DNA of 64,000 nucleotides, taken from contig NZ_CP087585.1 of assembly GCF_022200785.1 (NCBI RefSeq), forward strand, positions 310,001 through 374,000, read 5' to 3'. Each line of letters starts with the position of its first letter. The first letter of the stretch is position 1. Of this stretch, positions 16,564 through 36,981 are shown piece by piece. The position numbers and the translations under genes were made by a program. Under the pieces are notes generated by a model. That model made no database searches, had not been told where the DNA came from, and worked only from the letters and a program-made list of their open reading frames with translations. The stretch comes from Pedobacter mucosus (GTDB taxonomy: Bacteria; Bacteroidota; Bacteroidia; Sphingobacteriales; Sphingobacteriaceae).

Positions 16564-17754
16564 ATGTTTCAAGCACTACTTAATAAAACTAAAGGCGATA
16601 GATGGATCTGGTTGATTATCATCCTGCTTTCGCTAATCTCCGTAATGGCCGTTTATAGCGCTACGGGAACTTTGGCGTACAAAAAGGGCGAAGCTGTAGA
16701 AAAATTGCTTTTAACAAAACATTTAATCTTCGTTTTAATGGGGATTGGAATGATTTATATTGCCCATTTGTTGGATTACAGGTATTACGCAGGCATCTCA
16801 AAAATCTTGATGATCATTACAATTCCGTTGTTGTTCTATACTTTGATTTTTGGTGCTAATGTAAATGATGCTTCCCGCTGGGTAAAAATTCCGGTAATTG
16901 GTTTAACGTTTCAAACATCCGATTTGGCTAAACTTGCTCTAATTACGTTTCTGGCTAGAATGTTAACCAAAAAACAGGAAAATATTAAGAATGTAAAAGA
17001 ATCTTTCATCCCAATTATGGGCTCAGTTTGTGTGGTTTTTGTGCTTATTGCGCTGGCAAATTTATCTACCGCTTTAATGTTATTCGGTGTAAGTATTTTA
17101 CTGTTGATTATTGGAAGGATTAGCATTAAACAGATTTCTATAGTTTGTGTTGGAGGCGCCATTTTATTATTGTTTGTGGTATTTTTGGGTCCTAGACGTG
17201 CAACTTACGCCTCTCGTATCAAGTCTTTTATTCACCCTGAACAACAGCATTCTGATAAAACTTTCCAAGCAGATCAAGCTAAAATTGCTTTAGCAACTGG
17301 TGGTGTTTTTGGCAAAGGACCTGGAAACAGTACGCAAAGGAACTTTTTGCCTCACCCGTATTCAGATTTTATTTTCGCCATTATTATTGAGGAGTGGGGA
17401 ACATTAGGAGGTATTGTAATCATGATGCTTTACCTAATCCTCTTATATCGATGTATAAAAATTGTAACCAAAGCGCCCAAGGCATTTGGTGCCCTACTGG
17501 CGGCAGGATTAAGTTTTAGTCTAACCATTCAGGCTTTTGCAAATATGGCGGTTGCTGTAGGTTTAGGTCCGGTAACCGGAGTTCCATTGCCATTGGTAAG
17601 TATGGGCGGAACCTCAATGATTTTTACCAGTGTTGCCTTCGGAATTATATTGAGCGTAAGCAGAGATGTAGAAGAAAACTTGGCTGGTTTAATAAAGGAA
17701 GAAAAAGAAAAAAGTAATAAAGTGATTGTTGGAGAGATACCGGCTTTTGGATAG
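16564..17754 (+). CDS. ftsW: Septal peptidoglycan polymerase FtsW (SEDS family)
   Basis: This 396-residue inner-membrane SEDS glycosyltransferase polymerises lipid II at the septum together with FtsI. Ten hydrophobic helices are visible. Family signatures are GANVNDASRWVKIPVIGLTFQTSDLAKLALITFLA, HPYSDFIFAIIIEEWG, and GPVTGVPLPLVSMGGTSM near the C-terminus. A GGAGG Shine-Dalgarno is present just upstream (about 16550-16554), an exception in this window. The normal downstream partner murG is displaced by an inserted GxxExxY cassette (17770-18262). Confidence 0.96.
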   Translation: MFQALLNKTKGDRWIWLIIILLSLISVMAVYSATGTLAYKKGEAVEKLLLTKHLIFVLMGIGMIYIAHLLDYRYYAGISKILMIITIPLLFYTLIFGANVNDASRWVKIPVIGLTFQTSDLAKLALITFLARMLTKKQENIKNVKESFIPIMGSVCVVFVLIALANLSTALMLFGVSILLLIIGRISIKQISIVCVGGAILLLFVVFLGPRRATYASRIKSFIHPEQQHSDKTFQADQAKIALATGGVFGKGPGNSTQRNFLPHPYSDFIFAIIIEEWGTLGGIVIMMLYLILLYRCIKIVTKAPKAFGALLAAGLSFSLTIQAFANMAVAVGLGPVTGVPLPLVSMGGTSMIFTSVAFGIILSVSRDVEENLAGLIKEEKEKSNKVIVGEIPAFG

Positions 17755-17769
17755 AATTAATTAGTGATT

Positions 17770-18262
17770 TTGACCACAAAAGAAACAAAAGAACACATAA
17801 GGTAAATGATAATAAGTAAAGCATATTTAAAGGATTTAACTTATCAAGTCAATGGCGCTGCCATTGAAGTGCATAAGGCTTTAGGTGCAGGGTTGTTAGA
17901 AAGTACTTATCATAGATGTATGAGACACGAACTTTTGCTTAGGGGAATTCATTTTGAAACTGAAATGATGGTCCCTGTTCATTATAAAGGTATGGACATA
18001 GATACAAATCTTAGGTGTGATTTATTTGTTGAAAATGTTTTAACGATTGAATTAAAATCCGTGGATAAAATTATGCCGATCCATGAAGCGCAAATTATTA
18101 CCTATATGAAACTATTAAGTTCACCAAAAGGAATTATGTACAACTTCAATACAGTTAATATATATACTGAAGGGCAGAAAACATACGTAAACGATTTATA
18201 TAGATTTTTACCTGAATAAATAACAAATAACTTTTGTTCACTATTGTTTCTTTTGTGGTCAA
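17770..18262. mobile_element. GxxExxY cassette 1 with inverted terminal repeats, between ftsW and murG
   Basis: A perfect 19-bp inverted repeat bounds this about 490-bp unit: TTGACCACAAAAGAAACAA (17770-17788) and TTGTTTCTTTTGTGGTCAA (18244-18262). Only one gene, a GxxExxY protein, lies inside. It splits ftsW from murG, which normally are adjacent in this operon. The left end continues as AAGAACACATAAGGTA and aligns with the left end of a second unit at 33715-34213 (ACCACAAA, ACAAA, ACAC and TAAGGTA in the same order). Together this suggests a small mobile or cassette-like element. No transposase or target-site duplication is evident, so the mechanism is unknown. Confidence 0.6.
17806..18219 (+). 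CDS. GxxExxY protein, PD-(D/E)XK nuclease-like (copy 1)
   Basis: This 137-residue protein carries the name-giving motif G29-L-L-E32-S-T-Y35. The family is placed in the PD-(D/E)XK nuclease superfamily, and the matching pattern is visible: D72, then E82-L-K84 (TIELKS), then Q96 in EAQIITYMKLL. Its actual substrate in the cell is not known. It stands on the plus strand inside the dcw operon but has no link to cell-wall synthesis. It is flanked by 19-bp inverted repeats at 17770-17788 and 18244-18262. A homologue with the same motif layout lies at 33756-34136. The N-terminus fits ATG 17806. Read-through from ftsW would transcribe it. Confidence 0.85.
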   Translation: MIISKAYLKDLTYQVNGAAIEVHKALGAGLLESTYHRCMRHELLLRGIHFETEMMVPVHYKGMDIDTNLRCDLFVENVLTIELKSVDKIMPIHEAQIITYMKLLSSPKGIMYNFNTVNIYTEGQKTYVNDLYRFLPE

Positions 18263-18284
18263 CAAAAATAATTATAAACTAACA

Positions 18285-19391
18285 ATGAATAATTTCCCAA
18301 AAATTATCATATCGGGTGGTGGCACCGGCGGGCATATTTTTCCCGCCGTAGCCATAGCCAATGCGCTAAAACGTATTGTGCCAACCTGTGAAATTTTATT
18401 TGTGGGCGCAATTGGTCGCATGGAAATGGAAAAGGTTCCAGCTGCCGGATATAAAATAATTGGTTTAAATATCAGTGGGATGCAACGCGGTTCGATTGTA
18501 AAAAATCTGGCCCTGCCTTTTAAAATAATTGGAAGCGTACGCAAGGCAATTCAAATTATTAATGATTTTAAACCTGATGTTGTTGTGGGCGTTGGCGGCT
18601 ATGCATCCGGACCAATACTATACGCGGCATCTTTAAAAGGAATACCTTATTTAATACAAGAGCAAAATTCGTATGCAGGGATAACCAACAAGTGGTTAGG
18701 TAAAAAGGCTTCGAAAATTTGTGTTGCTTTTAATGATATGGAACAGTTTTTTCCTGTTGATAAAATTTTGAAAACAGGAAATCCAGTTCGTAAGGATGTG
18801 GTAGATATTAAAGGGAAACATTATGCTGGCGCTGAGCTATTAAAACTCGATCCATTAAAAAAAACAATATTGGTTACTGGCGGAAGTTTGGGTGCCAGAA
18901 CTTTAAATAAGAGTATTGAAAAACATTTGCCTGATATACTAGCTGAAGATGTTCAGTTGATATGGCAAACTGGGAAATTTTATTACAAGGAGGTTATAGA
19001 AAGATTGGGTTTAGCATATCATCCAAATGTTAGGATTTTAGAGTTTTTAAATAAAATGGATTTGGCTTATGCAGCTGCTGATGTAATTATTTCTAGAGCA
19101 GGTGCGGGCACAATCGCAGAACTCTGTTTAATTAAAAAACCGGTTATTTTAGTTCCTTCTCCAAATGTTGCGGAAGATCATCAAACTAAAAATGCAATGG
19201 CTTTAGCAAAAAATGGTGCTGCTATTTTAATTACTGATCGCTATGCAGAAGATACATTGGTGAAAGAAGCTTTAATGCTTTTAAAAAATAAAGAATTGAG
19301 TGAAAAGTTATCAGATAATTTAGGAAAAATGGCTTTGCCTAAAGCAGATGAAATTATTGCTAATGAAGTGTTGAAGCTGGTAGAAGAATAA
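18285..19391 (+). CDS. murG: Lipid II synthase MurG (GlcNAc transferase)
   Basis: This 368-residue peripheral membrane GT28 enzyme adds GlcNAc from UDP-GlcNAc to lipid I. GGGTGGHIFPA near the N-terminus and GGYASGP are the acceptor side; QEQNSYAG, TGGSLGAR and SRAGAGTIAEL with PSPNVAEDHQTKNA form the donor-binding domain. ATG 18285 is chosen: a longer frame starting at TTG 18234 would have its first codons inside the right inverted repeat of the GxxExxY cassette and lacks support. The gene therefore starts 22 bases after the inserted element. The length is normal. Confidence 0.95.
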   Translation: MNNFPKIIISGGGTGGHIFPAVAIANALKRIVPTCEILFVGAIGRMEMEKVPAAGYKIIGLNISGMQRGSIVKNLALPFKIIGSVRKAIQIINDFKPDVVVGVGGYASGPILYAASLKGIPYLIQEQNSYAGITNKWLGKKASKICVAFNDMEQFFPVDKILKTGNPVRKDVVDIKGKHYAGAELLKLDPLKKTILVTGGSLGARTLNKSIEKHLPDILAEDVQLIWQTGKFYYKEVIERLGLAYHPNVRILEFLNKMDLAYAAADVIISRAGAGTIAELCLIKKPVILVPSPNVAEDHQTKNAMALAKNGAAILITDRYAEDTLVKEALMLLKNKELSEKLSDNLGKMALPKADEIIANEVLKLVEE

Positions 19392-33714: not shown

Positions 33715-34213
33715 ACCACAAAGCCACAAAGGACACTAAGGTATTTTTAATAAAGCTATAAATATCCATTTATCACTCTTCTTATTCCATCTTTAATTTT
33801 TGCTTCATTAAAATTAATTAGAAGGCCAAGTTTACAATTTGAGAGCTTTAAGTAAGTTATGGTTTGGGCAAGATGTACTTCTTTCAAAATACTTACCGAC
33901 TTAACTTCTATGATAACTTTATTCTCAACTAAAATATCAATCCTATAACTACAATTTAATTTTGCTTCTTTGTATATAACAGGTAAATCTACTTGAGCCA
34001 TTATTTGCAAACCAGCTTGTTGTAATTCATAAACCAAACAAGCCTCGTAAGCAGACTCTAATAAACCTGGTCCAAGTTCTACATGAACTTGGAAAGCAGC
34101 GTTTACAATAATTTTAGCAATTTCATCTTCCTGCATCCCTTTTAATTTATTAGTTTAATAAGTTGAAGGGATGATAAACTATAATTCTTGGTGTTCTTAG
34201 TGTCTTTGTGGTG
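33715..34213. mobile_element. GxxExxY cassette 2 with inverted terminal sequences, between dapA and ligA
   Basis: The left end is ACCACAAAGCCACAAAGG (from 33715) then ACACTAAGGTA; the right end (34187-34213), read inward on the minus strand, is CACCACAAAGACACTAAGAA. CCACAAAG(G)ACACTAAG is thus an inverted repeat with a 1-base bulge (33724-33740 with 34196-34211). Only a GxxExxY gene lies inside. The left end aligns with that of cassette 1 at 17773-17804 with three gaps and about three mismatches. The gene points the opposite way relative to that end. No transposase or clear target duplication is seen. Confidence 0.55.
33756..34136 (-). CDS. GxxExxY protein, PD-(D/E)XK nuclease-like (copy 2)
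   Basis: This 126-residue protein has G24-L-L-E27-S-A-Y30, D67, E77-V-K79 (VIIEVKS) and Q91 in LAQTITYLKL, the same motif layout as the copy at 17806-18219, in line with the PD-(D/E)XK nuclease superfamily. The two proteins are clearly diverged (about 30-35% identical by eye), so this is not a recent duplication. It lies on the minus strand between ligA and dapA, inside a unit with inverted ends. The function is unknown; nuclease activity is a family-level prediction. Confidence 0.85.
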   Translation of the reverse strand: MQEDEIAKIIVNAAFQVHVELGPGLLESAYEACLVYELQQAGLQIMAQVDLPVIYKEAKLNCSYRIDILVENKVIIEVKSVSILKEVHLAQTITYLKLSNCKLGLLINFNEAKIKDGIRRVINGYL

Positions 34214-34216
34214 AAA

Positions 34217-36981
<2,765 letters not shown>

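What the first reader, a model, noticed from the sequence alone, without database searches (positions are those of the whole stretch)
17770..18262. GxxExxY nuclease-like gene flanked by perfect 19-bp inverted repeats splits the dcw operon
Seen: TTGACCACAAAAGAAACAA at 17770-17788 and its exact reverse complement at 18244-18262 bound a unit with a single gene between ftsW and murG. Known: GxxExxY proteins belong to the PD-(D/E)XK nuclease superfamily, and ftsW-murG adjacency is the rule in this operon. Inferred: a small mobile or cassette-like element that carries a nuclease-type gene instead of a transposase, sitting harmlessly inside an essential operon by keeping the transcript open (no terminator inside).
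Basis: partly seen in the sequence, partly recalled or inferred. Interest (0 to 1): 0.72.

Follow-up and report, generated by a model that had tools for sequence, protein, structure and literature searches.

The report
Self-bracketed nuclease gene inside essential operon
A small DNA-cutting-enzyme gene, framed by mirror-image repeat sequences that seem matched to the enzyme, sits between two essential cell-wall genes; similar units occur in several groups of bacteria and look like a little-described kind of gene-carrying element.

Summary
They belong to longer arms, each with three ~9-bp units. The pattern recurs: 100 of 162 sampled GxxExxY loci have strong inverted arms, against 1 of 98 control genes and 2.6% of mismatched arm pairs; counted once per site, 78 of 126. 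Arm class tracks the protein tree (8 changes; shuffles 33-39). Arm mismatches show no G.U excess over A.C (154:146), so matching seems kept at DNA level, not in RNA. In 13 of 1,350 aligned pairs at different sites homology ends within 10 bp of both arm ends; most alignments stop inside the unit. Units sit a median 5 bp behind a stop codon, mostly in operon sense. The window's copy is at the same place in 7 genomes, under purifying selection; the closest relative has a four-helix (S23-type) gene there. No target duplication, clean empty site or recent jump was found; plasmids and phages hardly carry the gene. Best reading: a REP/RAYT-like element with a nuclease in place of the transposase. Mobility and enzyme action are inferred.

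The parts
17758..17804 (+). left arm: array of ~9-bp units, with the perfect 19-mer at 17770-17788; units ACAAAAG 17776-17782, ACAAAAG 17785-17791, ACATAAG 17795-17801
18228..18274 (-). right arm: mirror copy, with the perfect 19-mer at 18244-18262; units read on the - strand ACAAAAG, ACAATAG, ACAAAAG
17806..18219 (+). GxxExxY protein, PD-(D/E)XK nuclease fold, 137 aa; conserved G27, G29, E32, Y35, D72, E82, K84, Q96, Y100, N113, F114
   Evidence: families; conservation, 73 sequences; AlphaFold2 pLDDT 96.9; fold match
16564..17754 (+). ftsW, upstream neighbour; stop codon 3 bp before the extended left arm, 15 bp before the 19-mer
18285..19391 (+). murG, downstream neighbour; start codon 10 bp after the extended right arm, 22 bp after the 19-mer
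33756..34136 (-). second GxxExxY gene of the window (TIGR04256 148.6 bits), with its own arms, between ligA and dapA
33717..33740 (+). array of the second element, downstream of its gene
34187..34210 (-). mirror array of the second element, upstream of its gene, 6 bp behind the stop of ligA (34217-36232, -)

Best explanation
The unit is a single-gene insertion element of about 0.5 kb. It has mirror-image end arrays of short degenerate repeats and encodes one compact RecB/Cas4-like nuclease. SHOWN by comparison: the arms belong to the gene, match without RNA-type asymmetry, and their sequence class follows the protein family; some homologous elements at different sites share sequence up to the arm ends and not beyond; units sit directly behind stop codons, mostly in operon sense; the window's copy is inherited at one site under purifying selection. 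INFERRED: the nuclease binds its own class of repeat and cuts at the ends; this has let the unit, and gene-less hairpins with the same ends, be copied or moved rarely into operon junctions, where the gene is transcribed from the host operon; long residence and decay follow. It works like a REP/RAYT system, with an unrelated enzyme.
For: Arms are real: own-arm score 15 or more in 100 of 162 loci; mismatched partners 2.6% of 648; window genes 0 of 45; neighbour genes 1 of 53; one locus per site 78 of 126. Arm class follows the protein: 112 labelled elements of 121, 4 classes, 8 changes, 200 shuffles 33-39; arm k-mer similarity against protein identity r 0.36 for pairs under 60% identity, 0 of 300 permutations as high; nearest relative under 75% shares the class in 104 of 111. 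Ends alike within an element: own arms median 19.5 against 11.5 and 12.5 with that relative, own higher in 107 of 121 (these 121 were chosen for own score 13 or more). DNA level: G.U 154, A.C 146 (p 0.69); one per site 127 and 121. Unit edges: 13 pairs end within 10 bp of both arm ends in both elements, L075/L171 and L074/L075 within 1 bp. Placement: stop of a co-directional upstream gene to arm, median 5 bp (n 100 of 120); of 85 elements between neighbours that share a strand 79 in operon sense, 6 against. Turnover: one junction beside a SprT-like gene carries units of three arm classes, or remnants, in close relatives. Active-site residues D, E, K in 164, 163 and 164 of 164. Gene-less hairpins with such ends.
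Against: No clear target duplication: mean best repeat 4.0 bp against 3.6 in shuffled pairs, 92 elements. No clean empty site at three junctions. No recent jump: the closest pairs are at the same site. Edge coincidence is rare: 13 of 1,350 pairs, not independent, 5 of them over 70% identity; in 9 pairs the left and in 63 the right edge was neither short nor at the arm end. Only 8 of 72,556 plasmid and 0 of 50,697 phage records match the window protein, the one query used. 41 of 162 loci score under 13. The arm-protein correlation drops to r 0.17 for pairs under 50% identity, and shared descent adds to it. Gene-less ends are not firmly tied to the gene: beyond own arms 15 matches in 7 gene-bearing genomes (3 of 7 with two or more) and 78 in 138 others (11 of 138), Fisher p 0.02, rank test p 0.06; the richest genome, G139, has no window-type gene. 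Template switching could keep arms alike without an enzyme.
Confidence: 0.55

Rival explanations
1. RNA-level intervening sequence, as in 23S rRNA: the arms form an RNA stem in the ftsW-murG transcript, RNase III cuts it, and the piece is tolerated because it leaves the mRNA.
For: The transcript folds with the arms paired (z -5.1). The junction in G007 and G008 holds a four-helix (TIGR02436) gene with inverted ends scoring 14.5 and 17, and TIGR02436 genes show the same design (23 of 30 loci with score 13 or more, mismatched 11%). The Coxiella IVS has a 28-bp stem, RNase III cleavage in vitro and tandem heptamers before its S23p gene (PMC4990558, passages).
Against: G.U mismatches (154) do not exceed A.C (146) in the sense strand, nor in TIGR02436 loci (16 against 28); an RNA stem under selection should tolerate G.U (established knowledge; no positive control was run). 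Arm class follows the protein, which a host RNase would not require.
Confidence: 0.12
2. Host-kept gene, not mobile now: a domesticated nuclease in the operon, its arms relics or regulatory sites made alike by template switching.
For: Same place in 7 genomes, dN/dS about 0.04-0.14; scarce on plasmids and phages; no clear target duplications.
Against: Patchy: ftsW-murG gaps of 29 relatives hold other inserts or almost nothing; one orthologue is broken (G483); in 13 pairs homology between sites ends at the arm ends.
Confidence: 0.18
3. Homing-like drive: the nuclease cuts the unoccupied junction, or a gene-less end left there, and repair copies the unit in; spread is by recombination between strains.
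For: Repeated occupation of one junction by units of different classes, with nested remnants; stable sites, few plasmids.
Against: The sites that co-vary with the protein lie in the element's own ends, not in the target; the same clade sits in different junctions.
Confidence: 0.1
4. Passenger in a MITE-like element moved in trans by an unrelated host transposase; the nuclease plays no part.
For: Gene-less hairpins with the same ends exist; TIGR02436 genes share the design.
Against: Arm class tracks the GxxExxY protein over elements from several phyla, hard to explain if a different enzyme reads the ends.
Confidence: 0.05

Closest known systems
REP/RAYT (REPtrons, TIRtrons, REPINs)
   Same: Single gene bracketed by inverted repeats; end 'flavours' matched to the protein; gene-less hairpin copies; old vertical inheritance; RAYT genes reported as not observed on plasmids (PMC3116915, PMC3733652, PMC8049555; passages only).
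   Different: RAYT is an HUH tyrosine transposase; here a PD-(D/E)XK nuclease. REP tags are GTAG/CGTC; here ends read TTNACCRC followed by tandem units. Copy numbers of gene-less forms are far lower here.
23S rRNA intervening sequence with S23p ORF
   Same: Small ORF between mirror-image ends; tandem heptamers near the ORF in Coxiella (PMC4990558, passages).
   Different: Lies in 23S rRNA, encodes a four-helix bundle, is cut out of RNA; ours lies in an mRNA operon and its arms show no RNA-type asymmetry.
Cas4 / RecB-type nucleases
   Different: Below the Cas4 Pfam cut-off (17.3 against 22.7 bits); shorter (137 against 202 residues in 4ic1); neighbours are ftsW and murG, not cas genes.
Insertion sequences and MITEs
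   Same: Terminal inverted repeats, gene-bearing and gene-less forms.
   Different: No transposase, no clear target duplication, nearly absent from plasmid records.

Membership tests
GxxExxY (TIGR04256 / PF13366) | Score over the curated cut-offs | tested here: met
   126.5 bits (cut-off 35) and 127.1 bits (cut-off 22)
GxxExxY (TIGR04256 / PF13366) | GxxExxY motif and nuclease residues D, ExK | tested here: met
   G29, Y35, D72, E82, K84 invariant and E32 nearly so in 73 sequences; enzyme activity not tested
REP/RAYT (REPtron) | HUH (Y1) tyrosine transposase | tested here: not met
   The only gene is a PD-(D/E)XK protein by family and model
REP/RAYT (REPtron) | GTAG or CGTC tag at the repeat end | tested here: not met
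   End consensus TTNACCRCNNAG at both ends (73 left, 70 right ends)
REP/RAYT (REPtron) | Gene flanked by repeats whose flavour matches the protein | tested here: met
   8 changes on the tree against 33-39 in shuffles
REP/RAYT (REPtron) | Gene-less hairpins tied to presence of the gene | tested here: inconclusive
   3 of 7 against 11 of 138 genomes with two or more, Fisher p 0.02, rank test 0.06; G139 a strong exception
23S rRNA intervening sequence | Inserted in 23S rRNA | tested here: not met
   Between ftsW and murG
23S rRNA intervening sequence | Function through an RNA stem | tested here: inconclusive
   No G.U excess, 154 against 146, speaks against; excision itself could not be tested
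Insertion sequence | Own transposase | tested here: not met
   Single ORF, nuclease family
Insertion sequence | Target-site duplication | tested here: inconclusive
   No clear signal in 92 elements; old copies may have lost it
Cas4 | Pfam Cas_Cas4 gathering score | tested here: not met
   PF01930 17.3 bits against 22.7
Homing endonuclease gene | Cuts the unoccupied allele | not testable with these tools
   Needs the enzyme

The most novel reading that the evidence does not exclude
A class of mobile element in which a lone PD-(D/E)XK nuclease reads the class of its own end arrays and copies the unit behind stop codons; the S23/four-helix units, of which 23S rRNA intervening sequences would be one case, are a sister class using the same end design with a different protein and repeat alphabet.
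Probability: 0.3. Interest if true: 0.9.

Novelty: new variant of a known kind. Interest (0 to 1): 0.7.

Why it matters
GxxExxY genes occur in about half of the genomes sampled from the window's phylum (122 of 247, 120 over the cut-off, up to 12 matches in one genome; Bacteroidota, judged from the Pedobacter matches), and the family libraries searched give them no role. If they act on their own ends, a large set of unexplained nucleases and of intergenic repeats gets one explanation. The arm-class link is a ready-made test set for how a small nuclease chooses DNA, and the S23 parallel would place rRNA intervening sequences in a wider class.

Tried and rejected
RNA-stem function as the reason for the arms: judged unlikely by the G.U/A.C test. 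Target duplications: no clear signal. Empty sites at ftsW-murG, the SprT-like junction and upstream of a parC/gyrA-like gene in another genus: relatives without the unit differ too much to define an edge. Travel on plasmids or phages (window protein as only query): hardly seen. Known RNA: one match far below its gathering score, inside ftsW. Anti-phage library: only weak Cas4 models, E 0.0004 and 0.0023. Sequence match of the profile to solved structures at E up to 1: 0. One search used a wrong reading frame for murG; redone. Literature, all in the open PMC library: 'GxxExxY' in 2 papers, one passage read, the other seen in the listing only, neither seen to concern such elements; PF13366 in 1 paper, listing only; twelve repeat strings in none; wider searches listed none that I recognised as describing it. 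Supplements and subscription papers were not searched. The TIGR04256 curators' comment was not available.

Full report

2. The same place in relatives. The 30 loci are the own genome and 29 of the 58 others searched for ftsW. Their ftsW-murG gap holds: this gene (own genome only); a four-helix gene (L034, L045, TIGR02436 81.5 and 80.3 bits; L046 a similar one with a stop, by eye); gene-less CCACAGAGG-type repeats; GTCATTGCGAGG hairpins; or nearly nothing. G007, the closest (ftsW 97%), has the four-helix gene. A DNA search of 145 genus genomes found the window-type unit at this junction in 7 (own, G427, G483, G439, G423, G512, G129); by matching values three of these are P. chinensis, P. frigiditerrae and P. 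montanisoli. Six intact copies give dN/dS 0.04-0.14 in 13 of 15 pairs, with dS high; two pairs gave no value; the G483 copy is broken. So the gene is an old resident, maintained for its protein.

3. The pattern is general. The own genome has 7 GxxExxY loci, two of them in the window. 56 of 121 family genomes and 122 of 247 phylum genomes have the family. From 178 loci (best matches plus hand-picked next ones, not a random sample) 173 gave a domain of 80 or more model positions; 9 duplicates were dropped; 164 remained, 162 with both flanks. Inverted-arm score of 15 or more: 100 of 162; mismatched partners 2.6% of 648; window genes 0 of 45; neighbour genes 1 of 53. At 13 or more: 121 of 162, against 6.5%, 1 of 45 and 3 of 53. 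The 164 still hold copies at the same site in related species; one per site leaves 126 scored, 78 at 15 or more and 95 at 13 or more. All 8 loci L077-L084 score 16 or more; their titles are six Planctomycetota/Planctomycetes (one a Phycisphaerae; four of the six share one site), one Chloroflexi and one Pyrinomonadaceae. Median unit length is 505 bp, arms 35 columns, unit spacing mostly 8-10 bp.

4. Arms and protein go together. Four arm classes (CRCNNAG 73, CRCNNAT 18, ATAAG 13, GATT 8; 9 of 121 not classed) need 8 changes on the protein tree, against 33-39 in 200 shuffles. The classes were set after seeing the arms, so the free test matters more: arm k-mer similarity correlates with protein identity (r 0.36 for pairs under 60%, 0 of 300 permutations as high; r 0.17 for pairs under 50%). 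Shared descent contributes to both measures. The two arms of one element match better (median 19.5) than with the nearest relative under 75% identity (11.5 and 12.5); the 121 elements were chosen for a good own score, which favours this; without choice it is 16.25 own against 9.0 mismatched.

5. DNA, not RNA. If the stem worked in the sense RNA, G.U mismatches should outnumber A.C. They do not: 154 against 146 (95% interval of the G.U share 0.46-0.57); one per site 127 against 121; in TIGR02436 loci 16 against 28. No positive control was run.

6. A unit with edges. Among pairs with aligned genes and good arms, 42 share flanks (same site). Of the other 1,350, 1,192 alignments stop inside the unit on both sides; 13 end within 10 bp of the outer arm ends on both sides of both elements, the best within 1 bp (L075/L171, L074/L075; flanks). 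They are not independent (L074 pairs with L075 and L076, one site), and 5 of 13 exceed 70% identity. Placement (120 elements, ORFs by a simple rule, same-site copies included): upstream gene co-directional in 100, stop to arm median 5 bp; next co-directional start median 21 bp. Of 85 with both neighbours on one strand, 79 lie in operon sense, 6 against. Co-directionality of the upstream gene alone (100 of 116) is not clearly above other gene pairs (99 of 127; p 0.10). Selection against harmful insertions could produce this as well as targeting.

7. Turnover. Of 30 loci of a SprT-like gene, 14 share the same upstream ORF; their junction holds a CGCAAAG-class unit (5), a CACAGAG-class unit (4), a CATATAAG-class unit (1, G007) or decayed remnants (4), classed by eye; in 16 loci the upstream ORF was not found. 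Two genomes have tandem copies. Gene-less hairpins with window-type ends lie elsewhere in the own genome and in G436, G439 and G459. G139 has 22 matches to the end pattern; the 15 that I looked at are one-sided, and no window-type gene was found there: unexplained.

8. Four-helix genes. 30 loci of TIGR02436 show the same design with other repeats (AGTTATAAGT, GTATCAAG, TTAGACA): 23 of 30 score 13 or more, mismatched 11%. The Coxiella 23S intervening sequence carries an S23p gene, terminal inverted repeats and tandem heptamers (PMC4990558, passages). I take this as a parallel, not as proof of one class.

9. Verdict. A recurrent single-gene unit whose mirror-image ends are linked to its nuclease is well supported; sharp unit edges are supported by few pairs. 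That the nuclease acts on the ends, and that the unit moves by it, is inference. No target duplication, empty site or recent jump was found, and plasmid (8 of 72,556) and phage records (0 of 50,697) hardly carry it. The closest analogue in behaviour is REP/RAYT; it fails that membership test on the enzyme and the end tag.

Noticed in passing
window 33717-34210: A second GxxExxY element (- strand) with CACAAAG-class arms between ligA and dapA.
   Followed up: partly
L034, L045, L046 (ftsW-murG gap of G007, G008, G029): A four-helix gene with its own inverted ends sits where the window has GxxExxY (L034, L045: TIGR02436); the L046 copy, judged by eye, has an internal stop near its end.
   Followed up: partly
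L344-L373: TIGR02436 (four-helix, 23S-IVS-type) genes are also framed by inverted arrays of short tandem repeats, with a different repeat alphabet.
   Followed up: partly
L324-L336 (genome G139): One-sided copies of the window-type end (15 of 22 matches looked at), next to AAAGACCAAAG minisatellites or a ~90-bp repeat, in a genome without a window-type gene found.
   Followed up: partly
L003, L005, L008-L011, L015, L017-L019 (own genome): An unrelated repeat (TTTTGACAnCAAAAGAAACAAA with variants) that matches the 19-mer with 1-3 mismatches.
   Followed up: no
L035, L036, L039-L042, L044, L059: GTCATTGCGAGGAAG-type hairpins in the ftsW-murG gap of relatives: this junction collects palindromic inserts of several kinds.
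   Followed up: no
L374, L375: Tandem duplicated GxxExxY units (92-94% alike), apparently joined through their end repeats.
   Followed up: partly
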